DNA of 64,000 bases from contig NW_026111769.1 in the NCBI RefSeq assembly GCF_024679095.1, positions 126,501-190,500 of the forward strand, written 5' to 3'. Of this stretch, positions 1 to 64,000 are shown one piece after another. The DNA comes from Eriocheir sinensis. Taxonomy: Eukaryota > Arthropoda > Malacostraca > Decapoda > Varunidae. The stretch's first letter is position 1; each line of letters opens with the position of its first letter. A model generated the notes under the pieces. It had not been told where the DNA came from and searched no databases. It was given only the letters and a program-made list of their open reading frames with translations. Both the position numbers and the translations under genes were made by a program.

Positions 1-1595
1 TTTTCTACACAATTTCTAATTACTTCTAATATTATTTTGTATATAGTTTTATATAAATTTACGTTATTTTGTATATTTTGTATATCTTATATTTATACAA
101 ATTACTATTCTTTTATTTTTATTTTGTTTACTTATTTTGATACGAATTTACATTATTTTTTATGTGTATTTTGTATACATTTTTTATACGTATTTACTTC
201 ACATTTGCTGCATGTATTTTGTATATATATATTTTTTTAGAAATCTATTATTTTATGCTGTATTCGTATATATATTTTAAAACAAATTTACATTGTTTTA
301 TATGTATTTTTGGTATTATCTATTTCAATACAATTGCACCTTTTATTGTATGTGTTTTTGTATATTATTTTAATAGGCAAATTTAATTTTTGATGTGTAT
401 TTTAGTATATATTTTTATAAATAAAAAAATGCGTTATTTTATGGGTATTTTGCCTCTTTATTTTCATACAAATTTACATTATTTTATTAATATTCTGTGT
501 ATTTATTTTCATACATTGATTTACATTACTCTATTTCCGTGTAAGCTTTGTACATATTTTTTTATACAAATTTACGTTATTTTAAGTAATATTTGTTTCA
601 TGTATTTCTTCATTCAATTTTACATTATTTTTATGTGTATTTTGTGTATGTATTTCAATGCAAATTTACTCTAATTTTTATGTGTATTTTGTATATTTAT
701 TTTCATACAAATTTAAAATATTTTTATGTATTTTGTATATAGTTTGATGGCTGAAATTTAGGTTATTTTATGTGTATTTTGTATATCTGTTTTATTACAA
801 ATACACATTCTTTTTATTGATATTTTGTTTATTTATTTTGACGCGAAATTTATATTATTTAATGTGTATTTTCTATATATATATTTTTATAACATATTTA
901 CATCATTTCATGTGTATTTTGTATAGTTTTAAACAAATTTATATATTTAATGTGTATTTTGTATATATATATTATACAAATACACATTCTTTTATTGGTA
1001 TTTTGTTTTACGTGTTATTTTGATACTAATTTACATGTATTTTATGTGTATTTTAATATACATATTTATATACGTATTTACTTAATTTTATGTGTATTTT
1101 CTACATATATTTTTATAGAAATTCCACTTTATTTCATGTGTGTATTCGTATATATATTTTGAAACAAATTTACATTGTTTATATGTATTTTTGTATACAT
1201 ATATTTATACTCATTTGCATTATGTAATGTGTGTTTTGTATATATTTTTTAATGCAAATTTATTTTATGTGCATTTTTGTACATATATTTTTATAGAAAT
1301 TTATTTATTTTATGTGTATTTTGTATATGTTTTCTCATAAAAATTTACATTATTTTATTGGTATTTTGTTTATTTATTTTGATACGAATTACATGATTAT
1401 ATGTGTATTTTGTATATATTTTTATTTTATGTATTTTGTACATATATTTCAATTCAAATTAAGCTTATTTTGTGTGTATTTTGTATATCTATTTTCATAC
1501 AAATTTAATTACTTTTGTGTATCTTTGTATATTGTTTTATATAAATTTACCTTATTGTATGTGCATTTTGTATATTTATATTTATACAAATACAC
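1..1595 (+). repeat. Forward-oriented block, diverged units
   Basis: Units read forward but are more degenerate than elsewhere. Odd segments are TTTGCTGCATG near 206, TTTCCGTGTAAGCTTTG near 535 and TTTGATGGCTG near 741. The first ~760 bases follow the same order of variants as 19,570-20,340, including the shared piece TTTTATGGGTATTTTGCCTC. Bases 1,141-1,595 follow 27,870-28,260, with some units missing. Nothing gene-like is seen. Confidence 0.85.
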
Positions 1596-1785
1596 ATAAA
1601 ATAAAGTAAATTTCCATAAAAATAAATATACAAAACACACACTAAATAATGTAAATGCGTATAAAAATATACAAAATACCTATCTAAATTCGTATCGAAT
1701 TAAACTAACAAAATACCAATAAAATAATGTAATTTTTGATGAAAATATATATAAAAAATACACATAAAATAACCTAAATACAAAT
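1596..1785 (-). repeat. Short inverted patch of ~4 units
   Basis: About 190 bases read as ACACATAAAATAA and AAAATACC, the reverse complement of the surrounding orientation. The order of variants, including CGTATCGAATTAA and AAAATAACCTAAATAC, matches the reverse complement of about 27,640-27,850. It looks like a small inversion or an inverted insertion within a forward block. Confidence 0.8.
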
Positions 1786-3068
1786 ACATATTTTGATACG
1801 ATTTGACATTATTCTATGTGTATTTTGTATATATTTTTCATACAAATTTACGTTATTTTATGTGTATTTGTTTATATATTTTGACACAAATTTACAATAT
1901 TTTATGAGTAATTTGTATATATATTTCAAAAGAAATTTACCTAGTTTTATGTGTATTTTGAATATCTATTTTCATACAAACTCAAATTATTTATATGTAT
2001 TTTTGTATATATTTCAATACAAATTTTAGTTAGGTTATGTGTATTTTGTAAATCTATTTTCATTCAAATATATATTTTTTTATTGGTATTTTGTTGATTT
2101 ATATTGATACGAATTTACATTATTTTATATGTACTTTTTATATATATTTTTATACGCATTTACATTATTTAATATTTATTTTGAATATATAATTTTATAC
2201 AAATTCATGGTATTTTATGTGTATTTGTATATATATTTTCATATAAATTTACATTATTTTGTGTATTTTGTACATATATTTCATTACAAATTTACCTTAT
2301 TTTATGTTTATTTTGTATGTGTATTCGGTACATTTATATTTATACACGTTTACTCATACAAATTTATATTATTTTATTGGTATTTTGTTTATTTATTTTG
2401 ATACAAATTTAAATATTTTATGTGTATTTTCGTATATATATTTTTATAAGAAATGCGCTATTTGATTGGAATTTTGCATCTTTATTTTCATACAAATTTA
2501 CATTATTTTATTAATATTCGGTGTATTTATTTTGATACGATTTTACATTATTCTATTTGTTTTTTGTATATATATATTTTTTATACATATTTACATTATT
2601 TAATGTGTATCTTGCATATATATTTCATACAAATTTATTATCTATTATTTATTTTCATACAAATACACATTCTTTTTATTATATTTTGTTTATTTATTTT
2701 GAATTTACATTACTTAATATGTATTTTATATATATATTTTTATACGTATTTACATAATTTCACGTGTAATTTGTAAATATATTTCTATAGAAATCTACGT
2801 TATTTTATGTGTATTCGTATATATATTTTGAAACAAATTTACACTGTTTTATTTGTATTTTGCGTTTTTTTTTCAATACAAATTAACCTTATTGTATGTG
2901 TGCATTTTGTATATTAATTTTAATACAAATTTAATTATTCTATGTGTATTTTTGTATATGTATTTTTATAAAAATATGCTTTATTTTATGTGTTATTTTC
3001 ATACAAATTTAAATTATTTTATTGATATTCTGTGTACTTATTTTGATACGATTTTACATTATTCTATG
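1786..3068 (+). repeat. Forward-oriented block
   Basis: About 28 forward units. It carries the variant series seen in other forward blocks: AGAAATGCGCTATTTGATTGG near 2448, TTGCATCTTTATTTTC, and TATTCGGTGTATTTATTTTG near 2515. It ends abruptly at TATTCTATGTATAACAAAAA near 3,060, where the orientation flips. Confidence 0.85.
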
Positions 3069-4915
<1,847 letters not shown>

Positions 4916-5638
4916 TATATTATATATATTTTTATTGATATTTGTTATTTATGTGTATTTTGTATATGTTTTCTCATAGAAATTTACATTATTTTATTGT
5001 ATTATGTCTATTTATTTTGATACGAATTAAATGATTATTTGTGTATTTTGTACATTTTTTATACGTATTTACATTATTTAATGTGTATTTTGTTTATTTA
5101 TTTTATACAAATTTACGTTATTATATGTGTATTTGTATAAGTATTTTGATCAAATTTACATTATTTATGTATTTTGTTTATATTTTTTAATTCATATTTA
5201 GATTATTTTTTGTGTATTTTGTATATCTATTTATTTTAATACAATATCAAATATTGTATATTTTTTCGTATATTTATTTTTATATAAAATGCGTTATTTT
5301 ATGGGTTTTTTTCATCTTAATTTTCATACAAATTTACATTATTTTATTAATATTTCTGTATTTATTTTTGATACGATTTTACATTATTTTATTTGTGTTT
5401 TGCATATACTTTTATACATATTTACATTATTTAATGTGTTTTGTATATATATTTGATACTAAATTACGTTATTTTAAGTCTATATGTTTATATATTTTCA
5501 TTCAAATTTATATTATTTTTTGTTTATTTTTTATATGTATTTCATTAAAATTTTTACAATTTTTATATGTTTTTGTATTTTATTTTCATACAAGTTTAAA
5601 TTTTTTCTGTATTTTGTTTATAGTTTTATACAAATTTA

Positions 5639-8600
5639 GGTTATTTTAAGTGTATTTTGTATATCTATTTTCATACAAATACACATTCTTTTCATGATAT
5701 TTTGTTTATTTATTTTGACACGAATTAACATTATTTAATGTGTATTTTGTATATATATTTTTATACGTATTTACATTATTTCAAGTGTATTTTGTATATA
5801 TATTTCTATATAAATCTGCGTTATTTTATGTGTATTCGTATATATATTTTGAAAAAAATTTACATTGTTTATGTGTATTTTGCATATTTTTCAATACAAA
5901 TTTACCTTATTGTATGTGCATTTGTATATTAATTTTAATACAAATTTGATTAATCTATGTGTATTTTTGTATATGTATTTTATAAAATATTCTTTATTTT
6001 ATGGGTATTTTGCATCTTTATTTTCATACAAATTTACATTATTTTATTGATATTCTGTGTATTTATTTTGATATGATTTTACGTTATTCTATGTGTATTT
6101 TGTATATATATTTCATATAAAATGTATTTGTTTTCATTTCATACAAATCTACATTATTTTATGTGTTTTTGGTACATGTATTTAAATACAAATTGAACTA
6201 GTTATATGTGTATTTTGTATATCTATTTTGTATGTATATTTTCATAGAAATTTACTCTATTTTATGAGTATTCGTATTTATATTTTGATACAAATTTACA
6301 TTATTGATGTGTATTTTGCATATCTATTTCAATACAAATTTACTTTATTGTACGTGCATTTTGTATATTTATTTTAATACAAATTTAATTATTTTATATG
6401 TATTTTTGTATATATATTTTTATGCAAATATGCGTTATTATATGGATATTTTGCATCTTTATTTTCATACAAATTTACATTATTTTATTGATATTCTCTT
6501 TATTTATTTTGATACGATTTAACATTATTCTATGTGTTTTTTTATATATATATATTTTTTATACATATTTACATTATTTAATGTTTATTTTGTATATATA
6601 TTTTATCCAAATTTACATTATTTTATGTGTATTTGTTTATATATTTTCATTTATATTTACATTATTTTAAGTGTTTTTTATATATATTTTCTACGTATTT
6701 AAATTATTTTATGTATTTTGTATATACATTTTCATAAAAATTACGTTATTTTTGTGTATAAGTATATATTTTGATACAAATTTTATACAAATTCATGTTA
6801 TTTAATGTGTATTTGTATATATTTTCCTTATATTATTTATGTGTATTTTTCATATAAATTTACCTTATTTTATGTTTATTTTGTATTTTTATTTCATTCA
6901 ATTTTAAATTATTTTATGTATATTTGTATTTGTATTTATGTTATTTTATGTCTATTTTGTATATATATTTTCATACAAATTAAATTATCATTTTGGTATT
7001 TTAATTTAATTCGATACGAATTGGAATTATTTCATAGGTATTTTGTATACATATTTTTATACTCATATACATTATCTAATGTTTGTTATTTATATATATA
7101 TTTTTTATACCAAATTTATTTAATGTTCATTTTATATTTTGTAGAAATTACGTTATTTTATGTATATAGTTTTATATAAATTTACGTTATTTTATGTGCA
7201 TTTTGTATATTTATATTTATACAAATACATTCTTTTATTTGTATATTGTTTATTTATTTTTATACGAATTAAAATTAATTTATGTGTATTTTTCCTTCAT
7301 TTTTTTTATACGTATTTAATTAATTTTATGAGTATTTTGTATATGTATTTTTATAGAAATCTACGTTATTTTATGTGTATTCGTATATATATTTTGAAAC
7401 AAATTTACATTATTTTATATGTATTTTGAATATCTATTTCAATACAAATTTACCTTATTGTATGTGCATTTTGTATATTTATTTTAATACAAGTTCAAAT
7501 ATTTTATGTGTATTTTTATCAATAATTTATAAAAAATGCGTTATTTTATGAGTATTTTGCATCTTTATTTTCATTTATATGTTTACTGTATATATATTTT
7601 ATACGCTTTATTTTAATATTTATTTTGAATATATATTTTATACAAATTTAATTATTTATTTGTGTTTTGTATATATATTTTTATAAAATTTACATTATTT
7701 TATGTGTATTTGTTTATTTATTTTAATTCAATTTACATTATTTTATGTGTATTTTGTATACATTTTTTTATACGTATTTACTTAATTTTATGTGTATTTT
7801 GTATATATATTTTTATAGAAATCTACGTTTTTTTATTTGTATTCGTATATATATTTTAAAACAAATTTACATTGTTTTATATGTATTTTTGTATATCTCT
7901 TTCTATACAAATTTACCTTATTGTATGTGCATTTTGTATATTTATTTCAATACAAATTGAAATATTTTATGTGTATTTTGGTATATATATTTTTTTAAGA
8001 AATGCGCTATTTTATGGGAATTTTGCATCTTTATTTTCATACAAATTTACATTATTTTATTAATATTCGGTGTATTTATTTTGATACGATTTTACATTAT
8101 TCTATTTGTTTTTTGTATATATTTTTTTTATACATATCTACATTATTTAATGTGTATCTTGCATAAATATTTTATATAAATTTATTATCTATTATCTATT
8201 TTCATACAAATACACATTCTTTTCATGATATTTTGTTTATTTATTTTGACACGAATTTACATTATTTGATGTGTATTTTGTATATGTATTTTTATACGTA
8301 TTTACATAATTTCATATGTATTTTGTATATATATTTCTATAGAAATCTACTTTATTTTATGTGTATTCGTATATATATTTTGAAACAAATTAACATTGTT
8401 TTATATGTGTTTTTGAATATCTCTTTCAATACAAATTTACCTTACTGTATATGCATTTTGTATATTTATTTCAATACAAATTTAAATATTTTATGTGTAT
8501 ATATATATTTTTATAAAAAATGCGATAATTTTTGGGAATTTTGCATCTTTATTTTCATACAAATTTACATTATTTTATTGATATTCTGTGTATTTATTTT

Positions 8601-9320
8601 GATAAGATTTTACATTATTCTATTTGTTTTTTGTATATATTTTTTTATACACATATACATTATTTAATGTGTATCTTGTATATATATTTTATACAAATTT
8701 ACGTTATTTTAAGGGTATTTGTTTATATATTTTCATTCAAATTTACATTATTTGATGTGTATTTTGTATATGTATTTCAATACAAATTTACCTAATTTTA
8801 TGTGTATATTGAATATTTCTTTTCAAACAAATTTAAATTATTTATGTGTATTTTTGTATATAGTTTTATACAAATTTAGGTTATTTTATGTACACATTTA
8901 CATTATTTAGTGTGTGTTTTGTATATATATTTTTGTGCAAATTTACTTTATTTTATGTACATATATTTTTATATAAATTTGCGTTATTTGTATATGTTTT
9001 CTCATACAAATTTACATTATTTTATTGCTGTTTTGTTTATTTATTTTGATACGAATTACATGATTATATGTGTATTTTGTACATATTTTTTTATACGTAT
9101 TTACATTACTTAATGTGTATTTTGTTTATATATTTTTAAACAAATCTACGTTATTATATGTATTTGTATAAATATTTTGATACAGATTTACATTATTTTA
9201 TGTATTTTGTATGTACATTTCAATTCAAATTTAGCTTATTTTAGCTGTATTTTGTATATATATTTTCATACAAATTTAATAACTTATGTGTATTTTCGTA
9301 TATAGTTTTATACAAATTTA
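5639..9320 (+). repeat. 3.7 kb tandem duplication, copy 1
   Basis: Begins with TTATTTTAAGTGTATTTTG, followed by ACACATTCTTTTCATGATA and TTTTGACACGAATTAACATT. The same series restarts at 9,323. The offset to copy 2 is about 3,682 near 5,640 and about 3,838 near 8,100, so indels of ~150 bp separate the copies. That difference includes a stretch present near 11,300-11,560 that is shortened near 7,570-7,750. Confidence 0.85.
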
Positions 9321-12300
9321 GGTTATTTTAAGTGTATTTTGTATATCTATTTTCATACAAATACACATTCTTTTCATGATATTTTGTTTATTTATTTTGA
9401 CACGAATTAACATTATTTAATGTGTATTTTCTATATATATTTTTATACGTATTTACATTATTTCAAGTGTATTTTGTATATATATTTCTATAGAAATCTG
9501 CGTTATTTTATGTGTATTCGTATATATATTTTGAAACAAATTTACATTATTTAATGTGTATTTTGCATATTTTTTCAATACAAATTTACCTAATTGTATG
9601 TGCATTTTGTATATTAATTTTAATACAAATTTGATTAATCTATGTGTATTTTTGTATATGTATTTTTATAAAAATATGCTTTATTTTATGGGTATTTTGC
9701 ATCTTTATTTTCATACAAATTGACATTATTTTATTGATATTCTGTGTTTTTTTTTATATGAATATACATTATTCTATGGGTATTTTGTATATATATTTAT
9801 ATAAAATGTATTTGTTTTCATTTCATACAAATCTACATTATTTTATGTGTTTTTTGTACATGTATTTAGATACAAATTTAACTAGTTATATGTGTATTTT
9901 GTATATCTATTTTGTATGTATATTTTCATAGAAATTTACTCTATTTTATGAGTATTCGTATATATATTTTGATACAAATTTACATTATTAATGTGTATTT
10001 TGCATATCTATTTCAATACAAATTTACTTTATTGTACGTGCATTTTGTATAGTTATTTTAATACAAATATAATTATTTTATATGTATTTTGTATATATTT
10101 TTTTATGCAAATATGCGTTATTATATGGATATTTTGCATGTTTATTTTCATACAAATTTACATTATTTTATTGATATTCTCTTTATATATTTTGATTCGA
10201 TTTAACATTATTCTATGTGAATTTTGTATATATTTTTTTATACATATTTACATTATTTAATGTTCATTTTGTATATATATTTTATCCAAATTTACTTTAT
10301 TTTATGTGTATTTGTTTATATATTTTCATACATATTTACATTATTTTAAGTGTTTTTTGTATATATATTTTTCTACGTATTTAAATTATTTTATGTGTAT
10401 TTTGTATAAAATTTTTATAAAAAATTACGTTACTTTATTGTGTGTATAAGTATATATTTTGATACAAATTTTTTACAAATTCATGTTATTTAATGTGTAT
10501 TTGTATATATATTTTCATACAAATTTATATTATTTTATGTGTATTTTTTCATATATTTCATTACAAATTTACCTTATTTTATGTTTATTTTGTATTTTTA
10601 TTTCATTCAATTTTAAATTATTTTATGTGTATATTTGTATTTGTATTTATGTTATTTTATGTCTATTTTGTATATATATTTTCATCCAAAACTACATTAT
10701 TTTATTGGTATTTTTAATTTAATTCGATACTAATTTAGATTATATCATAGGTATTTTGTATACATATTTTTATACTCATTTACATTATCTAATGTGTGTT
10801 TTGTATATATATTTTTATGCAAATTTATTTAATGTTCATTTTTGTACATATATTTTTGTAGAAATTTACGATATTTTATGTATATAGTTTTATATAAATT
10901 TACGTTATTTTATGTGCATTTTGTATATTTATATTTATACAAATACACATTCTTTTATTGGTATATTGTTTATTTACATTTATACGAATTAACATTATTT
11001 TATGTGTATTTTTCCTTCATTTTTTTTATACGTATTTACCTAATTTTATGTGTATTTTGTATATGTATTTTTATAGAAATCTACGCTATTTTATGTGTAT
11101 TCGTATATATATTTTGAAACAAATTTACATTATTTTATATGTATTTTGAATATCTATTTCAATACAAATTTACCTTATTGTATGTGCATTTTGTATATTT
11201 ATTTTAATACAAGTTCAAATATTTTATGTGTATTTTGGTATCAATAATTTTATAAAAAATGCGTTATTTAAAGGTATTTTGCATCTTAATTTTCATTTTA
11301 TATGTACTTTGTATATATATTTTTATACGCTTTTACATTATTTAATATTTATTTTGAATATATATTTTTATACAAATTCATGGTATTTTATGTGTATTTG
11401 TATACATATTTTCATATAAATTTACGTTATTTTATGTGTATTTTGAACATGTATTTTATTACAAATCTACCTTATTTTATGTTTATTTTGTATGTGTATT
11501 TTGTATATTTATATTTATCCAAATACACATTCTTTTATTGGTATTTTGTTTATTTATTTTAATTCGAATTTACATTATCTTATGTGTATTTTCTATACAT
11601 TTCTTTTATACGTATTTACTTAATTTTATGTGTATTTTGTATATATGTTTTTATAGAAATCTACGTTATTTTATTTGTATTCGTATATATATTTTGAAAC
11701 AAATTTACATTGTTTTATATGTATTTTTGCATATCTCTTTCAATACAAATTTACCTTATTGTATGTGCATTTTGTATATTTATTTCAATACAAATTTAAA
11801 TATTTTATGTGTATTTTGGTATATATATTTTTATAAGAAATGCGCTATTTTATGGGAATTTTGCATCTTTATTTTCATACAAATTTACATTATTTTATTA
11901 ATATTCGGTGTATTTATTTTGATACGATTTTACATTATTCTATTTGTTTTTTGTATATATTTTTTTTATACATATCTACATTATTTAATGTGTATCTTGC
12001 ATAAATATTTTATATAAATTTATTATCTATTATCTATTTTCATACAAATACACATTCTTTTCATGATATTTTGTTTATTTATTTTGACACGAATTTACAT
12101 TATTTGATGTGTATTTTGTATATGTATTTTTATACGTATTTACATAATTTCATATGTATTTTGTATATATATTTCTATAGAAATCTACTTTATTTTATGT
12201 GTATTCGTATATATATTTTGAAACAAATTAACATTGTTTTATATGTGTTTTTGAATATCTCTTTCAATACAAATTTACCTTACTGTATATGCATTTTGTA

Positions 12301-13163
12301 TATTTATTTCAATACAAATTTAAATATTTTATGTGTATTTTGGTATATATATTTTTATAAAAAATGCGATAATTTTTGGGAATTTTGCATCTTTATTTTC
12401 ATACAAATTTACATTATTTTATTGATATTCTGTGTATTTATTTTGATAAGATTTTACATTATTCTATTTGTTTTGTATATATTTTTTATACATATACATT
12501 ATTTAATGTGTATCTTGTATATATATTTTATACAACTTTACGTTATTTTAAGTGTATTTGTTTATATATTTTCACTCAAATTTACATTATTTGATGAGTA
12601 TTTTGTATATGTATTTCAATATAAATTTACCTAATTTTATGTGTATTTTGTATATTTCTTTTCAAACAAATTTAAATTATTTATGTGTATTTTTGTATAT
12701 AGTTTTATACAAATTTAGGTTATTTTATGTACACATTTACATTATTTAGTGTGTGTTTTGTATATATATTTTTATGCAAATTTACTTTATTTTATGTGCA
12801 TTTTTGTACATATATTTTTATATAAATTTGCGTTATTTGTATATGTTTTCATACAAATTTACATTATTTTATTGCTGTTTTGTTTATTTATTTTGATACA
12901 ATTACATGATTATATGTGTATTTTGTACATATTTTTTATACGTATTTACATTACTTAATGTGTATTTTGTTTATATATTTTTAAACAAATCTACGTTATT
13001 ATATGTATTTGTATAAATATTTTGATACAGATTTACATTATTTTATGTATTTTGTATGTACATTTCAATTCAAATTTAGCTTATTTTAGCTGTATTTTGT
13101 ATATATATTTTCATACAAATTTAATAACTTCTGTGTATTTTCGTATATAGTTTTATACAAATT
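9321..13163 (+). repeat. 3.8 kb tandem duplication, copy 2
   Basis: Repeats the variant order of 5,639-9,320. Diagnostic shared pieces are TTTACTTTATTGTACGTGC (6,344 and 10,025), the near-identical run 8,101-8,230 and 11,939-12,068, and TTTTAGCTGTATTTTG (9,240 and 13,084). It ends where GTATATAGTTTTATAC is followed by TTTACGATATTTTATG instead of TTTAGGTTATTTTAAG. Confidence 0.85.
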
Positions 13164-16813: not shown

Positions 16814-16823
16814 GCGCAGCTGC
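16814..16823. other. GC-rich decamer in an otherwise AT array
   Basis: GCGCAGCTGC is the only run like this I noticed in the window. The corresponding place in the copy at about 59,490 reads ATGCGCATCTCTT, so the decamer is private to this locus. No gene or known site can be tied to it. Confidence 0.7.
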
Positions 16824-48700: not shown

Positions 48701-51017
48701 TGTATTGAAAGAGATATGCAAAAATACATATAAAACAATGTAAATTTGTTTCAAAATATATAAACGAATACAAATAAAAAAACGTAGATTTCTATAAAAA
48801 TATATATACAAAATACACATAAAATTAAGTAAATACGTATAAAAAAATGTATACAAAATACACATAAAATAATGTAACTTCGAATTAAAATAAATGTAAA
48901 TTTGAATGAAAATATATAAACAAATACACTTAAAATAACGTAAATTTGTATAAAATATATATGCAAGATACACATTAAATAATGTAAATGTGTATAAAAA
49001 AATATATACAAAAAACAAATAGAATAATGTAAAATCGTATCAAAATAAATACACAGAATATCAATAAAATAATGTAAATTTGTATGAAAATAAAGATGCA
49101 AAATTCCCATAAATTATCGCATTTTTTATAAAAAAATATATACCAAAATACACATAAAATATTTAAATTTGTATTGAAATAAATATACAAAATGCATATA
49201 CAGTAAGGTAAATTTGTATTAAAAGAGATATTCAAAAATACATATAAAACAATGTAAATTTGTTTCAAAATATATATACGAATACACTTAAAATAAAGTA
49301 GATTTCTAGAGAAATATATATACAAAATACATATGAAATTATGTAAATACGTATAATAATATATATACAAAATACATATCAAATAATGTAAATTCATGTC
49401 AAAATAAATAAACAAAATATCATGAAAAGAATGTGTATTTGTATGAAAATAGATAATAGATAATAAATTTGTATAAAATATATATGCAAGATACATATTA
49501 AATAATGTAAATATGTATAAAAAAGTATATACAAAAAACATATAGAATAATGTAAAATCGTATCAAAATAAATACACCTAATATTAATAAAATAATGTAA
49601 ATTTGTATGAAAATAAAGATGCAAAATTCCCATAAAATAGCGCATTTCTTATAAAATATATACCAAAATACACATAAAATATTTAAATTTGTATTAAAAT
49701 AAATATACAAAATGCACATACAATAAGGTAAATTTGTATTGAAAGAGATATGCAAAAATACATATAAAACAATATAAATTTGTTTCAAAATATATAAACG
49801 AATACAAATAAAAAAACGTAGATTTCTATAAAAATATATACAAAATACACATAAAATTAAGTAAATACGTATAAAAAAATGTATACAAAATACACATAAA
49901 ATAATGTAAACTCGATTTAAAATAAATAAACAAAATACCAATAAAAGAATGTGTATTTGGATAAATATAAATATACAAAATACATATACAAAATAAACAT
50001 AAAATAAGGTAGATTTATAATAAAATATATGTACAAAATACACATAAAATAATGTAAATTTATATGAAAATATATATACAAATACACATAAAATACCATG
50101 AATTTGTATAAAAATATATATTCAAAATAAATATTAAATAATGTAAAAGCGTATAAAAATATATACAAAGTACATATAAAATAATGTTAATTCGTAACAA
50201 TATAAATCAACAAAACACCAAGAAAATAATATATATTTGAATGAAAATAAATTTACAAAATACACATAACATAACTAAAATTTGTATTAAAATATATACA
50301 AAAATACATATAAATAATTTGAGTTTGTATGAAAATAGATATTCAAAACACACATAAAACTAGGTAAATTTCTTTTGAAATATATATACAAAATACCCAT
50401 AAAATATTGTAAATTTGTGTCAAAATATATAAACAAATACACATAAAATAACTTAAAATAACGTAAATATGTATCAAATATATATACAAAAAGCACATTA
50501 AATAATGTAAATATGTATAAAAAATTATATACAAAAAACAAATGAAATAATGTAAAATCGTATCAATATAAATACAGAAAATATTAATAAAATAATGTAA
50601 ATTTGTATGAAAATTAAGATGCAAAATACCCATAAAATAACGCATTTTTAATAAAAATATATATACGAAAAAATATAAAATATTTGATTTTGTATTAAAA
50701 TAAATAGATATACAAAATACACATAAAATAAGCTAAATTTGAATTGAAATATAAATACAAAATACATAAAATAATGTAAATTTGTATCAAAATACTTATA
50801 CAAATACACATATAATAACGTAAATTTGTATAAAAATATATAAACATAATACACATTAAATAATGTAAATACGTATAAAAAAAATGTACAAAATACACAA
50901 ATAATCATGTAATTCGTATCAAAATAAATAGACAAAATACCAATAAAATAATGTAAATTTCTATGAGAAAACATATACAAAATACACATAAATAACGCAA
51001 ATATCGATAAAAATATA
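45750..51017 (-). repeat. Reverse part of copy 3
   Basis: Collinear with 31,405-36,677. Its first ~1.9 kb (to ~47,674) is the closest match to 52,900-54,826 in the following partial copy. Confidence 0.9.
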
Positions 51018-52899
51018 TAATATAATATATTTTATACATATTTAAAATATTTAATGTATATTTTGTATATATATTTATCAGATTTACGTTATTTTATATG
51101 TATTTTATATATTTTCATACAAATTTACATTATTTATGTGAGTTTTGTATATGTATTCAATACAAATTTGCCTAACTTTATGTGTATTTTGCATATCTAT
51201 TTTCAAACAAATTTAAATTATTTTTGTGTATTTTTGTATATATTTTTATGCAAATTTTAGTTATTTTATTTCTTTTTGTATATATATTTTCCTACAAATA
51301 TACATAAATTTATTGCAATTTTGTGTAATTAATTTTATACGAATTTACAATAATTTAAGTGAATTTTGAATATATATTTTTCTACGTATTTAAATTATTT
51401 CATGTGTATTTTATATATACATTTTCATAAAAATTTGCGTTATTTTATTGTGTGTATTCGTATATATTTTGAAACAAATTTTATACAAATTCATGTTATT
51501 TTATTTGTATTTGTATACATATTTTCATACAAATTGATATTATTTTATGTGTATTCTTATATATTTTATTAAAATTTTACCTTATTTTATGTTTATTTTG
51601 TATATTTATTTCATTCAATTTTAAATTATTTAATGTGTATATTTGTATTTGTATTTAGGTTATTTTATGTGTGTTTTCTATATATATTTTCATCCAAAAT
51701 TACATTATTTTATTGTTATTTTCTTAATTTAACTCGATACGAATTTAGATTATTTCATAGGTATTTTGTATACATATTTTTATACTCATTTACATTATCT
51801 AATGAGTGTTTTGTATATATTTTTTTATGTAAACTAATTTTATGTGCATTTTGTACATATATTTTTATAGAAACTTAAAAAGTTATTTTATGTGTATTTT
51901 GTATGTTTTCTCATACAAATTTACATTATTTAATTAGTTTTTTGTTTATTTATTTTGATACGAATGACTTGATTATTTGTGTATTTTGTAAATATTTTTT
52001 ATACGTATTTACATTACTTAATGTATTTTGTTTATATATTTTTAAAATTTACGTTATTATATGTGTATTTGTTAAAAATATTTTGAAACGAACTTACTTT
52101 ATTTTATGTATTTTGTATATATATTTCAATTCAAATTTAGCTTATTTGTGTATTTTGTATATCTATTTTCATACAAATTTAATTACTTGTGTATTTTGTA
52201 TATAGTTTTATACAAATTTACGTTATTTTATGTGCATTTTGTATATTTATATTTATACAAATACACACTCCTATTGGTATTTTGTTTATTTATATTTATA
52301 CGAATTTACATTATTTTATGTGTTTTGTATACATTTTGATTCGTATTTACTTAATTTTATTTGTATTTTGTATATATATTTATAGAAATCTACGTTATTT
52401 TATGTGCATTCGTATATATATTTTGAAACAAATTTACATTGTTTTATATGTATTTTGCATATCTATTACAATACAAATTTACCTTATTGTATTTGCATTT
52501 TGTATATTTATTTTAATACAAATTCAAATATTTTATGTGTATTTTGGTATATATAATTTTATAAAAAATGCGTTATTTTATAGGTATTTTGCATCTTAGT
52601 TTTCATACAAATGTACATTATTTTATTAATATTCTGTGTATATATTTTGATACGATTTTATATTATACTATTTGTTTTGTATATATTTTTAAACATATTT
52701 TCATTATTTAATGTGTATTTTTATATATTTTATACAAATTACCGTTATTTTAAGTGTATTTGTTTTATATAATTTCAAATTTACATTATTTTAAGTGTAT
52801 TTTGTATATGTATTTCAATACAAATTTACCTAATTTTATGTGTATTTTGTATATTTATTTTCATACAAATTTAAATTATTTTTGTGTTTTTTTGTATAA
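51018..52899 (+). repeat. Forward part of the fourth copy
   Basis: Collinear with 43,834-45,749, but with many short losses of GT, CT or T and a dense substitution patch at 51,300-51,367. These give it a visibly different mutation pattern from its neighbours. Confidence 0.88.
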
Positions 52900-53090
52900 C
52901 ATATAGAGTAAATTTCTATGATAATATATATTCAAAATACATATAAAATTATGTAAATAAGTATAAATATATATATATCAAATACACCTAAAAAAAATAA
53001 AATTCGTATCAAAATAAATAAACAAAATTCCGATAAAAGAACGTATATTTGTAGGAAAATAAATATACAAAATACACATAAAATTACGAA

Positions 53091-54826
53091 AATTTGAATA
53101 AAATTATATACAAAAAAACAAAAAAATAAATTTCAATTTGTATGAAAATAGATATACAAAATACACATATAATTAGTTAAATTTGTATTTACATACATGT
53201 ACAAAATACACATAAAATAATGTAAATTTGTATGAAATGAAAAATTCACATAAAATAACGTACATTTATATAAAATAGATATACAAAATATACATAGAAT
53301 AATGTAAAAATCGTATCAAAATAAATACACAGAATATCAATAAAATAATGTAATTTGTATGAAAATACCCATAAAATAAAGCATATTTTTTTAAAAATAA
53401 ATATACAAAAATACACATAGAATAATTAAATGTGTATTAAAATTAATATACAAAATGCACGTACAATAAGGTAAATTTGTATTGAAAAAATATACAAAAT
53501 GCACAAAAAAGTGTAAATTTGTTTAAAAATCTATATACGAATACACATAAAATAACGTAGATTTCTATAAAAATATATATACAAAATACACATGAAATGA
53601 TGTAAATACGTATAAAAATATATATACAAAATACACATTAAATAATTTAAATTCACCTCAAAATAGATAAACAAAATATCAATAAAAGAATGCGTATTTG
53701 TATGAAAATAGATATACAAAATACTCATAAAATAACCTAAGTTTGAATAAAACTATATACAAAAATACACAAAAATAAATTAAATTTGTATGAAAATAAA
53801 TATACAAAATACACAAAAAATTAGGTAAATTTGTATTGAAATACATATACAAAATACACATAAAATAATGGAAATTTGATTGAAAATATATAAACATATA
53901 CACTTAAAATAACGTAAATTTGTATCAAATATATATACAAAATACACCTTAAATAATGTAAATATGTATAAAAAAATATATACACAACACAAATAGAATA
54001 ATGTAAAATCGTATCAACAATAAATACACAGAATATTAATAAAATAATGTAGATTTGTATATAAAAAAAAAGATGCAAAATAGCCATAAAATAACGCATT
54101 TTTTTATAAAAATATATATAACAAAATACACATAAAATATTAAAATTTGTATTAAAATAAATATAAAAAATGCACATACTATAAGGTAAATTTGTATTGA
54201 AATAAATATGCAAAATACATATAAAACAATGTAAATTTGTTTCAAAATATATATACGAATACACATAAAATAACGTAGATTTCTATAAAAATATATACAA
54301 AATACACATAAAATGAAGTAAATAAGTATAAAAAAATGAATACAAAATATACATAAAAATCGTATCAAGATAAATAAACAAAGTACCAGTAAAAGAATGT
54401 GTATTTGTATAAATATAAATATACAAAATACACATAAAATATCGTAAATTTGTATAAAACTATATACAAAAATACACAGAAGTAATTAAATTTGTATGAA
54501 AATATATATACAAAATACAGCTAAAATAAGCTAAATTTGAATTGAAATGTACGTACAAAATACATAAAATAATGTAAATCTGTATCAAAATATTTATACA
54601 AATACATATAATAACGTAGAGTTGTTTAAAAATATATAAACAAAATACACATTAAGGAATGTAAATACGTATAAAAAATATGTACAAAATACACATATAA
54701 TCATGTAATTCGTATCAAAATAAATAAAAAAAATAGCAATAAAATAATGTAAGTTTGTATGAGAAAACATATACAAATAACGCAAATTTCTATAAAAATA
54801 TATGTACAAAAATGCACATAAAATAA
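53091..54826 (-). repeat. 1.74 kb tandem duplication, copy 1
   Basis: From AATTTGAATAAAATTATATA at 53,091 to just before the same string at 54,827. Offsets are 1,736 at the start and 1,739 at the AAAGAATGCGTATTTG marker (53,691/55,430), about 39 units. Confidence 0.92.
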
Positions 54827-56552
54827 AATTTGAATAAAATTATATACAAAAAAACAAAAAAATAAATTTCAATTTGTATGAAAATAGATATACAAAATAC
54901 ACATATAATTAGTTAAATTTGTATTTACATACATGTACAAAATACACATAAAATAATGTAAATTTGTATGAAATGAAAAATTCACATAAAATAACGTACA
55001 TTTATATAAAATAGATATACAAAATATACATAGAATAATGTAAAAATCGTATCAAAATAAATACACAGAATATCAATAAAATAATGTAATTTTGTATGAA
55101 AATACCCATAAAATAAAGCATATTTTTTTAAAAATAAATATACAAAAATACACATAGAATAATTAAATGTGTATTAAAATTAATATACAAAATGCACGTA
55201 CAATAAGGTAAATTTGTATTGAAAAAATATACAAAATGCACAAAAAAGTGTAAATTTGTTTAAAAATCTATATACGAATACACATAAAATAACGTAGATT
55301 TCTATAGAAAAATATATACAAAATACACATGAAATGATGTAAATACATATAAAAATATATATATACAAAATACACATTAAATAATTTAAATTCACCTCAA
55401 AATAGATAAACAAAATATCAATAAAAGAATGCGTATTTGTATGAAAATAGATATACAAAATACTCATAAAATAACCTAAGTTTGAATAAAACTATATACA
55501 AAAATACACAAAAATAAATTAAATTTGTATGAAAATAAATATACAAAATACACAAAAAATTAGGTAAATTTGTATTGAAATACATATACAAAATACACAT
55601 AAAATAATGGAAATTTGATTGAAAATATATAAACATATACACTTTAAATAACGTAAATTTGTATCAAATATATATACAAAATACACCTTAAATAATGTAA
55701 ATATGTATAAAAAAATATATACAAAACACAAATAGAATAATGTAAAATCGTATCAACAATAAATACACAGAATATTAATAAAATAATGTAGATTTGTATA
55801 TAAAAAAAGATGCAAAATAGCCATAAAATAACGCATTTTTTATAAAAATATATATAACAAAATACACATAAAATATTAAAATTTGTATTAAAATAAATAT
55901 AAAAAATGCACATACTATAAGGTAAATTTGTATTGAAATAAATATGCAAAATACATATAAAACAATGTAAATTTGTTTCAAAATATATATACGAATACAC
56001 ATAAAATAACGTAGATTTCTATAAAAATATATACAAAATACACATAAAATGAAGTAAATACGTATAAAAAATGAATACAAAATATACATAAAATCGTATC
56101 AAGATAAATAAACAAAATACCAGTAAAAGAATGTATTTGTATAAATATAAATATACAAAATACACATAAAATATCGTAAATTTGTATAAAACTATATACA
56201 AAATACACAGTAATTAAATTTGTATGAAAATATATATACAAAATACATCTAAAATAATCTAAATTTGAATTGAAATGTACGTACAAAATACATAAAATAA
56301 TGTAAATCTGTATCAAAATATTTATACAAATACATATAATAACGTAGAGTTGTTTAAAAATATATAAACAAAATACACATTAAGTAATGTAAATACGTAT
56401 AAAAAAATGTACAAAATACACATATAATCATGTAATTCGTATCAAAATAAATAAACAAAATAGCAATAAAATAATGTAAGTTTGTATGAGAAAACATATA
56501 CAAATAACGCAAATTTCTATAAAATATATGTACAAAATGCACATAAAATAAA
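54827..56552 (-). repeat. 1.74 kb tandem duplication, copy 2
   Basis: Near-identical to copy 1. The new joint reads CACATAAAATAAAATTTGAA at about 54,816-54,835, where units that normally continue AAAGTAAATTTGC jump to ATTTGAATAAAATT. Near its end it has small contractions. It continues past the old break with AAAGTAAATTTGCAAAAAT. Confidence 0.92.
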
Positions 56553-57209
56553 GTAAATTTGCAAAAATATATATACAAAACACACTAAATAATGTAAATG
56601 CGTACATAAAATAACCTAAATTTGTATAAAACTATATACAAAAATACTCAAAAATAATTTAAATTTGTTTGAAAAGAAATATACAAAATACACATAAAAT
56701 TAGGTAAATTTGTATTGAAATACATATACAAAATACACATCAAATAATGTAAATTTGGATGAAAATATATAAACAAATACACTTAAAATAACGTAAATTT
56801 GTATAAAATATATATGCAAGATACACATTAAATAATGTAAATGTGTATAAAAAATATATGTACAAAAAACAAATAGAATAATGTAAAATCGTATCAAAAT
56901 AAATACACAGAATATCAATAAAATAATGTAAATTTGTATGAAAATAAAGATGCAAAATTCCCAAAAATTTTCGCATTTTTTATAAAAATATATTTACCAA
57001 AATACACATAAAATATTTAAATTTGTATTGAAATAAATATACAAAATGCATATACAGTAAGGTAAATTTGTATTGAAAGAGATATTCAAAAATACATATA
57101 AAACAATGTAAATTTGTTTCAAAATATATATACGAATACACATAAAATAAAGTAGATTTCTATAGAAATATATATACAAAATACATATGAAATTATGTAA
57201 ATACGTATA

Positions 57210-57219
57210 AAAATATTTT
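57210..57219. repeat. Palindrome at segment boundary
   Basis: AAAATATTTT, a perfect 10 bp palindrome, marks the point where the reverse units of the fourth 7.17 kb copy give way to forward units related to 14,763 onward. Confidence 0.8.
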
Positions 57220-58485: not shown

Positions 58486-59603
58486 CTATTTTATATATAT
58501 TTTATACAAATTAGGTTATTTAATGTGAGCTTTTATATATTTTTATCCAAAGTTACTTTACGTTCATTTTTTGACATATCTTATTATAGAAATTAGCGTT
58601 ATTTTATGTATTTGTATATGTTTTCTCATACAAATTTACATTATTTTATTGATATTTTGTTTATTTAGTTTGATACGAATTACATGATTATATGTGTATT
58701 TTGTACATATTTTTTATACGTATTTACATTACTTAATCTGTATTTCGTTTATATATTTTTAAACAAATTTACGTTATTATATGTATTTTTATAAATATTT
58801 TGATACAAATTTACATTATTTTATGTATTTTGTATATACATTTCAATTCAGATTTAGCTTATTTTATCTGTATTTTGTATATCTATTTTCATACGAATTT
58901 AATTACTTCTGTGTATTTTTGTATATAGTTTTATACAAATTTACGTTATTTTATGTGTATTTTGTATATTTATATTTATACATATACTCATTCTTTTATT
59001 GGTATTTTGTTTATTTATTTTGATACGAATTTACATTATTTTATGTGTATTTTGTATACATTTTCTTATACGTATTCACTTCATTTTATGTGTATTTTGT
59101 ATATATATTTTTATACAAATATCCGTTATTTTATGTGTATTCGTATATATATTTTGAAACAAATTTACATTGTTTTATATGTATTTTGCATATCTATTTC
59201 AATACAGATTTACCTTATTGTATGTGTATTTTGTATATTTATTTTAATACAAATTATTTTTTTCATGTGTATTTTGGTATATATATTTTTATAAAAAATG
59301 CGTTATTTAATGGGTATTTTGCATCTTTATTTTCATACAAATTTACTTTGTTTTATTAATATTCTGTGTATTTATTTTGATACGATTTTACATTATTCTA
59401 TTTGTGTTTTGTATATATTTTTTTTTATACATATTTACATTATTTAATGTGTATTTTGTATATTTTAAAACAAATTTACGTTATTTTATGCGCATCTCTT
59501 AAAATATTTTGATACAAATTAACATTATTTTATGTATTTTGTATATATATTTCAATATAAATTTAGTTTATTTTATGTATACATTGTATATCTATTTTCA
59601 TTC
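58462..59603 (+). repeat. Forward block after fold-back
   Basis: The first ~160 bases are a shortened version of 15,738-15,950, with deletions such as GTGAGCTTTTATATATTTTT near 58,525. After that it follows 15,950-16,925 closely, with ATGCGCATCTCTT near 59,489 in place of the GC-rich decamer. Confidence 0.86.
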
Positions 59604-62107
59604 GTATCAAAATAAATAAACAAAATAGCAATAAAATAATGTAAATTTGTATGAGAAAACATATACAAATACACATAAAATAACGCAAATTTCGAAAAAT
59701 ATATATGTACAAAAATGCACATAAAATAAAGTAAATTTGCATAAAAATATATATACAAAACACACATTAAATAATGTAAATGCGTACATAAAATAACCTA
59801 AATTTGTATAAAACTATATACAAAATACACAAAAATATTTAAAATTTGTATGAAAAGAAATATACAAAATACTCATAAAATTAGGTAAATTTGTATTGAA
59901 ATACATATACAAAATACACATAAAATAATGTAAATTTGAATGAAAATATATAAACAAATACACTTAAAATAACGTAAATTCGTATAAAATATATATGCAA
60001 GATACACATTAAATAATGTAAATGTGTATAAAAAAATATATACAAAAAAGAAATAGAATAATGTAAAATCCTATCAATATAAATACACAGAATATCAATA
60101 AAATAATGTAAATTTGTATAAAAAAAAAGAAAGATGCAAAATTCCCATAAAATAGCGCATTTTTTATAAAAAATATATATATACCAAAATACACATAAAA
60201 TATTTAAATTTGTATTGAAATAAATATACAAAATGCATATACAGAAAGGTAAATATGTATTGAAAGAGATATTCAAAAATACATATAAAACAAAGTAAAT
60301 TTGTTTCAAAATATATATACGAATACACATAAAATAAGGTAGATTTCTATAGAAATATATATACAAAATACCCATGAAATTATGTAAATACGTATAAAAA
60401 TATATATACAAAATGCATATCTAGGTAAATTCGTGTCAAAATAAATAAACAAAATATCATGAAAAGAATGTGTATTTGTATGAAAATAAATAATAGATAA
60501 TAAATTTGTATGAAATATATATGCAAGATACACGTTAAATAATGTAGAAATGTATAAAAAAATATATATACAAAAAACTAATAGAATAATGTGAAATCGT
60601 ATAAAAAAAACACCGCATATTAATAAAATAATGTAAATTTGTATGAAAATAAAGATGCAAAATTCCCATTAAATAGCGCATTTCTTATAAAAATATATAT
60701 ACCAAAATACACATAAAATATTTAAATTTGTATTGAAATAAATATACAAAATGCACATACAATAAGGTAAACTTGTATTGAAAGAGATATGCAAAAATAC
60801 ATATAAAACAATGTAAATTTGTCTCAAAATATATATACGAATACACATAAAATAACGTAGATTTCTATATAAATATATATACAAAATACACATAAAATTA
60901 AGTAAATACGTATAAAAATAGATATACAAAATACACATAGAATAATGTAAAATTGTTTAAAAAAAAATAAACAGAATATAAATAAAATAATGTAAACTTG
61001 TATGAAAATAAAAATGCAAAATACCCATAAAATAAAGCATATTTTTATAAAAATACATATACAAAAAAACATATAGCATAATTTAATTTGTATTAAAATT
61101 AATATACAAAATGCATAAACAATAAGGTAAATTTGTATTGAAAAATATGCAAAATACACATAAAACAGTGTAAATTTATTTCAAAATCTATATACGAATA
61201 CTCATAAGTCAACGTAGATTTCTATAGAAATATATATACAAAATACACATCAAATGATGTAAACACGTATAAAAATATATTTATATAAAATACACATTAA
61301 ATAATGTAAATTCGCGTCAAAATAAATAAACAAAATATCAATAAAAGAATGTGTATTTGTATGAAAATAGATATACAATATACACATAAAATCACCTAAA
61401 TTTGTGTAAAACTATATACAAAAATACATTTACAAAATACACATAAAATAATGTAAATTTGAATGAAAATATATAAACAAATACACTTAAAATAACGTAA
61501 ATTTGTATTAAATATATATAAAAAATACACATTAAATAATGTAAATATGTATAAAAAAATATATACAAAACACAAATAGAATAATATAAAATCGTATCAA
61601 AATAAATACACAGAATATTAATAAAATAATGTAAATTTGTATGAAAATTAAGATGCAAAATACCCACAAAATAACTCATTTTTTATAAAAATATATATAC
61701 CAAGACACACATAAAATATTTGAATTTGTATTAAAATAAATATACAAAATGCACATACAATAAGGTAAATTTGTATTGAAATAGATATGCAAAATACATA
61801 TAAAACCATGTAAATTTTTTTCAAAATATATATACGAATACACATAAAATAACGTAGATTTCTATGAAAATAAATATACAAAACACACATAAAATTAAGT
61901 AAATACGTATAAAAAAAGGTATACAAAATACACATAAAATAATGTAAACTCGTATGAAAATAAATAAAGAAAATACTAATAAAAGAATGTGTATTGTATA
62001 AATATAAATATACAAAATACAAATAAAATAACGTAAATTTATATAAAACTATATGCAAAAATACACAAAAGTAATTAAATTTGTGTGAAAATAGATATAC
62101 AAAATAC
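59604..62107 (-). repeat. Reverse block
   Basis: Collinear with 16,926-19,409. Begins at TTCGTATCAAAATAAATAAAC and carries the same TATCTAGGTAAATTCGTGTC joint at 60,418 that is present near 17,730. Confidence 0.88.
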
Positions 62108-62124
62108 ATGTGTATTTTGTATAT
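62095..62124. repeat. Stem-loop at orientation switch, second copy
   Basis: Same 13 bp arms ATATACAAAATAC and GTATTTTGTATAT around ATGT as at 19,397-19,426. Confidence 0.92.
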
Positions 62125-62697
62125 TTATTTTCATACAAATTGAAATTATTTTTGTTTATTTTTTTATATATTTTCACACAAATTCTCGTTATCTTATGTG
62201 TATTTTGTATATTTATTTTTTCTACAAATATACGTTCTTATATCTGAATTTTGTTTATTGAGTTCGAAAACAATTTCCCTTCTTTTGTATATCTATTTTT
62301 ATACAAATTAAAATACTTCTGTGTATTTTTGTATATAGTTTTATATAAATTTACGTTATTTTATGTGTATTTTGTATAGTTATATTTATACAAATACACA
62401 TTCTTTTATTGGTATTTTTTTATTTATTTTGATACGAATTTACATTATTTTATGTGTATTTTGTATACATTTGTATACATTTGTATTTACTTCATTTTAT
62501 GTGAATTTTGTATATATATTTTTATAGAAATCTACGTTATTTTATATGTATTCGTATATATATTTTGAAACAAATTTACATTCTTTTATATGTATTTTGC
62601 ATATCTATTTCAATACAAATTTACCTTATTGTATGTGTTTTTTATATATTTATTTTAATACAAATTTAATTTTTTTATGTGTATTTTGGTTTATATG
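62108..62697 (+). repeat. Forward block
   Basis: About 13 forward units matching 19,410-19,985. Slightly diverged near 62,270 (GAGTTCGAAAACAATTTCCC against GAGTTTGAAACGAATTTACC). Ends abruptly after TTTTGGTTTATATGG. Confidence 0.85.
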
Positions 62698-64000
62698 GTA
62701 AGGTAAATTTGTATTGAAAGAGATATTCAAAAATACATATAAAACAATGTAAATTTGTTTCAAAATATATATACGAATACACATAAAATAACGTAGATAT
62801 CTATAAAAATATATTCAAAATACACATAAAATGAAGTAAATACGTATAAAAAAATGAATACAAAATACACATAAAAATCGTATCAAAATAAATAAACAAA
62901 ATACCAGTAAAAGAATGTGTATTTGTATAAATATAGATATACAAAATACACAGAAAATATCGTAAATTTGTATAAAACTATATACAAAAATACACAGAAG
63001 TAATTAAATTTGTATGAAAATATATATACAAAATACAGCTAAAATAAGCTAAATTTGAATTGAAATGTACATACAAAATACATAAAATAATGTAAATCTG
63101 TATCAAAATATTTATACAAATACATATAATAACGTAGATTTGTTTAAAATATATAAACAGAATACACATTAAGTAATGTAAATACGTATAAAAATATGTA
63201 CAATATACATATAATCATGTAATTCGTATCAAAATAAATAAACAAAATAGCAATAAAATAATGTAAATTTGTATGAGAAAACATATACAAATAACGCAAA
63301 TTTCTATAAAAATATATGTACAAAAATGCACATAAAATAAAGTAAATTTGCATAAAAATATATATACAAAACACACACTAAATAATGTAAATCCGTACAT
63401 AAAATAGCCTAAATTTGTATAAAACTATATACAAAAATACACAAAAATAATTTAAATTTGTTTGAAAAGAAATATACAAAATACACATAAAACTAGGTAA
63501 ATTTGTATTGAAATACATATACAAAATACACATCAAATAATGTAAATTTGAATGAAAATATATAAACAAAAACACTTAAAATAACGTAAATTTGTATAAA
63601 ATATATATGCAAGATACACATTAAATAATGTAAATGTGTATAAAAAAAATATATACAAAAAACAAATAGAATAATGTAAAATCGTATCAAAATAAATACA
63701 CAGAATATCAATAAAATATGTAAATTTGTATGAAAATAAAGATGCAAAATTCCCAAAATTTATTGCATTTTTAATAAAAATATATTTACCAAAATACACA
63801 TAAAATATTTAAATTTGTATTGAAATAAATATACAAAATGCATATACAGTAAGGTAAATTTGTATTGAAAGAGATATTAAAAAATACATATAAAACAATG
63901 TAATTTGTTTTAAAATATATATACGAATACACATAAAATAAAGTAGATTTCTATAGAAATATATATACAAAATACATATGAAATTATGTAAATACGTATA
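62698..64000 (-). repeat. Reverse block running off the window
   Basis: About 29 reverse units. The first unit resembles the TAAGGTAAATTTGTATTG series near 23,352, then the order follows about 22,260 to 23,490. This fits a second pass through the region that starts after 20,440, with about 2.3 kb (roughly 19,985-22,250) left out. Confidence 0.83.

What the first reader, a model, noticed from the sequence alone, without database searches (positions are those of the whole stretch)
1..64000. A 45 bp minisatellite nested in at least three larger repeat levels
The sequence shows units of about 45 bp; recurring ordered sets of variants about 0.45-1.15 kb apart (for example the ATGCGTTATTTTATGGG variant at 5,991, 6,430, 7,535, 8,002, 8,520, 9,676, 10,112); a 7.17 kb repeat; and probably a ~42 kb repeat. 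Nested higher-order repeats are established for centromeric satellites such as alphoid DNA. A 45 bp, ~13% GC unit with orientation changes inside the repeat is not a family I recognise.
Basis: partly seen in the sequence, partly recalled or inferred. Interest (0 to 1): 0.8.

Follow-up and report, generated by a model that had tools for sequence, protein, structure and literature searches.

The report
Nested AT-rich satellite with built-in inversions
The whole stretch is non-coding repeat DNA, probably from a crab, in which 45-letter units form ordered blocks inside larger blocks, some of them flipped, and the same flipped blocks recur on many chromosomes; it is a new satellite of a known general kind.

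Summary
The core observation is real. The 64 kb is one satellite of about 45 bp and 16% GC (1,514 pieces, 1,356 near full length). Unit variants follow a strict order (neighbour information 3.46 bits against 0.57 in shuffles), giving higher-order units of about 520, 715 and 1,140 bp. Above these lie 3.7-3.8 kb repeats, three complete 7.14-7.21 kb units (99.1-99.4%, gaps not counted), each containing an inversion, and one 4.1 kb pair 42.7 kb apart rather than a 42 kb period. Orientation switches 23 times. The host is a 1.77 Gb arthropod genome, probably a decapod, possibly Eriocheir sinensis (inferred). There the satellite is roughly 6% of the assembly (extrapolated from 44,867 exact hits of a 29-mer), and three inversion junctions recur 296, 358 and 1,573 times exactly on many scaffolds. 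It is non-coding. Higher-order repeats and recurrent inversion sites each have precedents (alphoid DNA; Tribolium). A (peri)centromeric role is plausible but unproven: of the 33 fully listed chromosome-size scaffolds 14 had no hit, and 11 of the 19 with hits carry more than one block.

The parts
1..64000 (.). 45 bp, 16% GC satellite array; T-rich consensus TTATTTTATGTGTATTTTGTATATATATTTTTATACAAATTTACA
   Evidence: circular-profile decoding, 1,514 pieces and 24 orientation blocks
4921..16924 (+). longest same-orientation block; contains two copies of a 3.7-3.8 kb repeat (5619-7711 with 9301-11443; 7709-9794 with 11545-13621)
   Evidence: 95.0% and 96.4% without gaps; 92.7% and 94.1% in BLAST
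31745..38882 (.). 7.1 kb composite higher-order unit, complete copy 1 (mainly an A-rich-strand block followed by a T-rich-strand block)
38883..46090 (.). 7.2 kb composite unit, complete copy 2 (99.37% to copy 1, gaps not counted)
46091..53241 (.). 7.15 kb composite unit, complete copy 3 (99.3% to copy 2, gaps not counted)
29193..31744 (.). partial 7.17 kb unit (tail)
   Evidence: 98.2-99.3% to the tails of copies 1-3
53242..54826 (.). partial 7.17 kb unit (head), first of two
   Evidence: 99.37% to the head of copy 2
54977..57216 (.). partial 7.17 kb unit (head), second of two
   Evidence: 99.42% to the head of copy 2
15857..19986 (.). segment duplicated 42.7 kb away
   Evidence: 97.13% to 58534-62696, gaps not counted
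58534..62696 (.). second copy of that segment
3565..7759 (.). arm of a large inverted repeat; partner 24138-28390
   Evidence: 92.4% over 4,297 columns, minus strand
10544..14054 (.). arm of a large inverted repeat; partner 21573-25086
   Evidence: 95.6% over 3,536 columns, minus strand
16865..16984 (.). inversion junction at 16924, also at 59600; the 120-mer consensus (one base off this copy) has 358 exact copies in the genome
19350..19469 (.). inversion junction at 19409, also at 62107; the 120-mer consensus (one base off this copy) has 296 exact copies in the genome
26982..27051 (.). inversion junction at 27016, also at 29513, 36679, 43836, 51019 and inverted at 4920; this 70-mer has 1,573 exact copies in the genome
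58438..58485 (.). perfect 24 bp palindrome at an orientation switch
3470..3578 (.). (TA)n tract inside the satellite
28909..29114 (.). (TA)n tract inside the satellite

Best explanation
A non-coding, very AT-rich satellite that builds heterochromatin, probably the (peri)centromeric kind, in a decapod crustacean. Shown: 45 bp units have diverged into types; ordered sets of types recur; larger blocks of 3.7-3.8 kb and 7.17 kb repeat these sets; inversions lie inside the repeated blocks and their junctions recur with them, in the window and on many chromosome-size scaffolds. Inferred: the larger levels are the younger ones (from their identity); the spread works by unequal exchange, gene conversion or replication-based copying between arrays, so that units holding both orientations are homogenised as wholes; and the arrays serve as heterochromatin that includes or flanks centromeres.
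For: Order of types far above shuffles. Neighbouring units are no more alike (77.7%) than random ones (78.5%), while copies of larger blocks are 95-99.4% alike without gaps, the signature of higher-order repeats. The same type order is seen on scaffolds C2, C7 and C23 and on several unplaced contigs. Three junctions recur exactly 296, 358 and 1,573 times in nearly equal orientation; the reversed-pattern control gives zero. Roughly 6% of the assembly, my extrapolation from window density. Hits cluster in blocks: on 11 of the 12 scaffolds hit by both 120-mers they come within 0.3 Mb of each other, 1.4 expected. Sampled blocks have ordinary DNA on at least one side.
Against: Among the fully listed scaffolds C1-C33, 14 have no hit in any call and 11 of the 19 with hits have blocks over 1 Mb apart, which one centromere per chromosome would not give; exact long patterns, gaps or mis-joins could explain part of it. 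Only 45 of 358 and 30 of 296 copies are on chromosome-size scaffolds. No chromatin or cytological data. Dyad symmetry in the unit is not above chance (P 0.11). I did not rank this satellite against other tandem repeats of the genome.
Confidence: 0.55

Rival explanations
1. Interstitial heterochromatic satellite without a centromere role: nested amplification and inversions are by-products of neutral exchange and template switching.
For: Two or more blocks on 11 of 19 hit scaffolds among C1-C33 and no hit on 14; no significant dyad; junction palindromes not above synthetic junctions as a set (Fisher P 0.095).
Against: Large amount and clustering in blocks; most studied animals and plants have megabase tandem repeats at centromeres (start of the abstract of PMC4053949, seen in a search listing).
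Confidence: 0.3
2. The inversion junctions are themselves functional (loop or boundary elements of a macro-dyad), kept by selection.
For: Three junctions recur hundreds to over a thousand times exactly; inversion sites in Tribolium madens are likewise very similar among copies and were proposed to matter (PMC13081366, parts of sections 7 and 10).
Against: Junctions are copied with their units, which explains their sameness without selection; no inverted match over 150 bp within 1.5 kb of a switch exceeds 92%, so long perfect hairpins are not available; only 5 of 13 independent junctions were seen on contigs other than the window's own.
Confidence: 0.08
3. Spread by extrachromosomal circles or a mobile element that carries satellite segments to new sites.
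For: Very similar units on many scaffolds.
Against: Not tested: I did not search segment boundaries for element ends or target-site duplications; ordinary exchange between arrays would suffice.
Confidence: 0.04
4. Assembly or read artefact (chimeric or fold-back reads).
For: One switch, 58461, has a perfect 24 bp palindrome; the assembly holds gaps and most copies are on unplaced contigs.
Against: Fold-back reads would give near-identical mirrored arms; the best inverted match over 150 bp within 1.5 kb of any of the 23 switches is 92%, and arms starting at the join (found at 20 of 23) are 72-87% alike in the rows printed; three junctions recur hundreds of times. Four switches (28887, 57216, 58260, 58461) found no second copy in 26 fetched loci and could still be local artefacts.
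Confidence: 0.02
5. A family of 15-residue protein repeats (45 bp = 15 codons; open frames up to 307 aa).
For: Long open frames on the T-rich strand; one predicted protein in a public collection matches (P0001).
Against: Many unit lengths are not multiples of three (833 of 1,514 pieces); substitutions fall 403/403/476 on the three codon positions and 381 of 401 indels are not multiples of three; shuffled unit order gives equally long frames.
Confidence: 0.01

Closest known systems
Alphoid (alpha-satellite) higher-order repeats (features recalled)
   Same: ordered sets of diverged monomers amplified as units with very similar copies
   Different: 45 bp not 171 bp, 16% GC, orientation changes inside the unit, same unit types on several scaffolds; no protein-binding box looked for
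Tribolium madens TmSat1/TmSat2 (PMC13081366; abstract and the first parts of sections 7 and 10 read)
   Same: abundant satellites with higher-order units, multi-kb inverted subarrays and highly similar inversion sites; putative (peri)centromeric
   Different: subunits of about 110 bp (59-113 bp in TmSat2) against 45 bp; no composite of the 7.17 kb kind is described in the parts I read; FISH exists there, none here
Freshwater crayfish satellites, e.g. PlSAT3-411 (PMC13130569, abstract and section 14 read)
   Same: decapod satDNA; minisatellites under 100 bp dominate, family mean lengths 35-47 bp, GC as low as 17.2%
   Different: PlSAT3-411 by its name is far longer; no sequence comparison was possible; higher-order nesting not mentioned in what I read
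Classical crab poly(dA-dT) light satellites (recalled, no paper seen; one search found none)
   Same: abundant AT-rich DNA in crabs
   Different: nearly pure alternating AT; here only two short (TA)n tracts in the 150 of 299 rows shown

Membership tests
Satellite DNA | long head-to-tail arrays of a non-coding unit, high genomic abundance | tested here: met
Higher-order repeat satellite | fixed order of diverged monomers repeated, copies of the set far more alike than neighbouring monomers | tested here: met
Alphoid DNA | 171 bp monomer | tested here: not met
   45 bp
Alphoid DNA | chromosome-specific higher-order units | tested here: inconclusive
   same types and five junctions on C2, C7, C23 or other contigs in the loci fetched, but no systematic comparison by chromosome
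Macro-dyad satellites (Tribolium type) | multi-kb subarrays of opposite orientation | tested here: met
   for other contigs
Macro-dyad satellites (Tribolium type) | inversion sites recurring through the genome | tested here: met
   296, 358 and 1,573 exact copies for three junctions; of 13 independent junctions 9 had a copy in the 26 fetched loci, 5 of them on contigs other than the window's own, 4 had none
Centromeric satellite | present at the centromere of every chromosome | tested here: inconclusive
   29 of 72 or 73 chromosome-size scaffolds hit; of C1-C33 19 hit and 14 not, with exact long patterns and one 601 bp probe
Centromeric satellite | bound by CENP-A | not testable with these tools
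   needs chromatin data

The most novel reading that the evidence does not exclude
A centromeric satellite whose unit of selection is a bidirectional higher-order repeat: the inversion junctions, not the 45 bp monomer, are the conserved functional element, maintained across the chromosomes of a many-chromosome crab as loop or boundary sites of (peri)centromeric chromatin.
Probability: 0.07. Interest if true: 0.75.

Novelty: new variant of a known kind. Interest (0 to 1): 0.45.

Why it matters
As far as I know, centromeres of decapods, which have very many chromosomes, are hardly described. This gives a concrete, abundant candidate with a readable history of nested amplification, and a second arthropod lineage in which inversion sites inside satellite arrays recur through the genome, so the idea that macro-dyads matter more than primary sequence can be tested outside Tribolium.

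Tried and rejected
Coding repeat: rejected. Palindromic junctions as a fold-back signature: against ordinary positions they looked strong, but against synthetic plus-minus joins of the same satellite the set is not significant (14 junctions, Fisher P 0.095; singly, uncorrected, only 58461 at 0.007 and 19409 at 0.022). Dyad symmetry of the 45 bp consensus (TTTGTATA...TATACAAA): permutation P 0.11. RNA families at the gathering threshold and tRNAs: none. Viral and prokaryote contigs: no match to one exact 37-mer, and no relative of P0001 in viral contigs. Meloidogyne holocentromere satellites were considered from memory; listing only, dropped because flanking DNA, TTAGG repeats and chromosome number fit a decapod better. 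The one-block-per-chromosome picture that searches suggested (19 of 25 hit scaffolds with a single site) was weakened. The first consensus of junction 27016 (120-mer) found only 12 exact copies, perhaps because it held a rare variant; the 70-mer core found 1,573. Of the loci typed three (L009, L017, L023) contain gaps or non-satellite DNA; L021 was left out as non-satellite.
Full report
WHAT IS THERE. The window has 16.4% GC and is covered by a 45 bp tandem repeat. A profile with both strands and a penalty for switching cut it into 1,514 pieces, 1,356 of them near full length, mode 45 bp with many of 44 and 43 bp, mean identity of the near-full units to the consensus 86.9%. The model decodes every base, including the (TA)n tracts; no piece longer than 26 bp scored below my cut-off of 10 bits. 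The orientation switches 23 times, giving 24 blocks. No tRNA and no RNA family at the gathering threshold was found.

HIGHER ORDER. Clustering the units and reading them along the T-rich strand shows a grammar, E-B-F-A-C-H-I-G-J-L-D-O-C-M-K-(N or T), in longer forms followed by an unassigned piece and P-Q-R-E-B-D-A-S-A-K-N before the next round; many copies are truncated. Neighbour information between types is 3.46 bits over 1,199 adjacent pairs, against a mean of 0.57 and a maximum of 0.64 in 200 shuffles. Neighbouring units are as different as random ones (77.7% and 78.5% identity). The anchor pair C-H occurs 63 times; its 45 same-strand spacings fall mostly at 360-361, 436-440, 509-524, 580, 626-638, 712-716 and 1,109-1,153 bp, with single values at 462, 1,022, 1,331, 2,011 and 2,491 (no shuffle control for the spacings).

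LARGER LEVELS. Identity over aligned columns, gaps not counted: 3.7-3.8 kb copies 95.0% and 96.4%; the 42.7 kb pair 97.1%; the three complete 7.14-7.21 kb units 99.1-99.4% (with 33-62 gap events per pair); partial units 98.2-99.4%. BLAST with gaps counted gives 92.7% and 94.1%, 95.8%, and 97.6-98.5% for long matches within the 7.17 kb array. Large inverted repeats link 3565-7759 with 24138-28390 (92.4%) and 10544-14054 with 21573-25086 (95.6%). The identities suggest, but do not prove, older small and younger large levels.

INVERSIONS. Each 7.17 kb unit contains a main block in each orientation (about 124 and 45 pieces), so the inversion is part of the repeat. Several switches in the window look like copies of one another: 27016, 29513, 36679, 43836 and 51019 (with 4920 inverted); 31404, 38582, 45749 and 52898; 16924 and 59600; 19409 and 62107. 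In 26 fetched loci (189,243 bases, L002-L026 and L037) 10 of 14 tested switches, or 9 of 13 if 4920 and 27016 count once, have a copy spanning the join at 88% or more; 4 (28887, 57216, 58260, 58461) have none. Five of the 13 (3072, 16924, 19409, 27016, 31404) were seen on contigs other than the window's own; the other four (1587, 1790, 20441, 62696) only on that contig. Of these loci L002-L008 had been picked by a probe about 1 kb from one junction, L009-L017 come from the window's contig, and L018-L026 and L037 from C2, C7 and C23. Arms that start at the join (found at 20 of 23 switches) are 72-87% alike in the rows printed, and no inverted match over 150 bp within 1.5 kb exceeds 92%, which speaks against fold-back read artefacts.

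GENOME. The window is part of contig C1543 (359 kb) of a 1.765 Gb genome in 2,158 contigs. All eight sampled stretches of that contig outside the window between 1 and 259 kb are satellite, apart from 2,500 N at its start; at 300-309 kb a non-satellite insert interrupts it. An exact 29-mer (27 in the window) occurs 22,329 times forward and 22,538 times reverse, with zero for the reversed control; scaled by window density this is about 106 Mb or 6%, a rough figure because the window may not be typical. Exact junction sequences: 19409 (120-mer), 155+141; 16924 (120-mer), 187+171; 27016 (70-mer), 767+806.

WHERE ON CHROMOSOMES. Listings are cut at 100 rows in contig order, so chromosome-size scaffolds are complete for the two 120-mers and complete to C33 for the 70-mer. 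Together, 29 of the 72 or 73 chromosome-size scaffolds are hit (C72 has 1.74 Mb and C74 0.14 Mb; C73 was not looked at). Among C1-C33, 19 are hit and 14 are not; exact long patterns can miss diverged arrays. Hits cluster: on 11 of 12 scaffolds hit by both 120-mers they come within 0.3 Mb, against 1.4 expected. But 11 of the 19 hit scaffolds have hits more than 1 Mb apart (C1, C2, C6, C7, C12, C13, C16, C20, C23, C26, C27). Of 20 stretches sampled on C2 one was satellite, two were all N and 17 were ordinary or part N. Six stretches each on C6, C13 and C18 gave 1, 1 and 2 satellite hits near the known hit, with ordinary DNA on both sides on C6 and C13 (one stretch N on C6) and on the left side on C18 (right side N). 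C34 begins within satellite. The starts of 20 other contigs held no satellite (19 readable, one all N).

SPECIES. Inferred only. One flank has 42.5% GC (L021); the arthropod telomere motif TTAGG is abundant (8,116 hits of a 30-mer; the 100 rows listed are all inside C1); nuclear COX1 copies with TGA read as tryptophan look crustacean to me from memory. The count of 72 or 73 large scaffolds and 1.765 Gb fits Eriocheir sinensis, with 73 chromosome pairs and 1.77 Gb by flow cytometry, though the assembly of that paper has 1.57 Gb (passages of PMC8062507). That paper's main text has no word beginning with 'satellite' or 'centromer'.

NOT CODING. Open frames of up to 307 aa arise because the T-rich strand lacks stops; unit-order shuffles give the same (maximum 315 codons against a mean of 284, 5-95% range 230-362). 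Of the pieces 833 of 1,514 have lengths that are not multiples of three. Among copies of seven such frames, substitutions fall 403/403/476 on the codon positions and 381 of 401 indels are not multiples of three. One unnamed protein of a public 11.8 kb contig, P0001, matches, so a related stretch of this satellite lies in another public record.

LITERATURE. Ten searches of the held library gave no paper that by its listing is on this satellite; three of them returned nothing at all. The search for 'Eriocheir' with 'satellite DNA' listed 9 papers, none on this subject by title; one of them, PMC10454600, I searched by terms. Most subscription journals are not held, and repeat databases were not searched. 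The closest precedents are the Tribolium satellites of PMC13081366 (abstract, first parts of sections 7 and 10) and crayfish minisatellites of PMC13130569 (abstract, section 14). PMC11708212 (Cancer borealis; passages) reports satellites as 0.01% of that genome.

VERDICT. A real, very regular nested satellite with inversions built into its units, some of which recur genome-wide. The kind is known; this combination with a 45 bp unit in a probable crab appears undescribed in what I could search. A (peri)centromeric role is the most likely function but remains open.

Noticed in passing
L017 3659-6008 (C1543:303658-306007): About 2.35 kb of non-satellite DNA sits inside the satellite, with ends beginning CCTCTTC in inverted form and an 8 bp repeat TTTCTTAA at the flanks; read by eye as a DNA transposon insertion.
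   Followed up: partly
window 3470-3578 and 28909-29114: (TA)n tracts of about 110 and 206 bp; the second lies just after the switch at 28887. Only 150 of 299 rows were shown, so there may be more.
   Followed up: no
window 14157-14202 and 14797-14842: Short TTAGGTTATC repeats that resemble the TTAGG telomere motif, but look by eye like variants of the unit's own TTTACATTATTTTATG.
   Followed up: partly
G000 C1 2.55-25.2 Mb: Interstitial runs of TTAGG: the 100 listed hits of the 30-mer are all inside C1 (8,116 hits in the genome).
   Followed up: no
G000 C18:1008262-1009822, C48, C98, C60, C70, C37, C24, C6, C26: Nuclear copies of mitochondrial COX1 (15 matches); the C18 locus L107 also carries sequence that reads to me, from memory, like COX2 and perhaps NAD2.
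   Followed up: partly
G000 C1 18.16-18.43 Mb: All 36 listed 29-mer hits here are in one orientation and sparse, unlike the mixed block at 12.94-13.11 Mb (the list ends at 18.43 Mb).
   Followed up: no
P0001: A predicted 201 aa protein in a public 11.8 kb contig is a translation of a relative of this satellite, i.e. a false gene call.
   Followed up: yes
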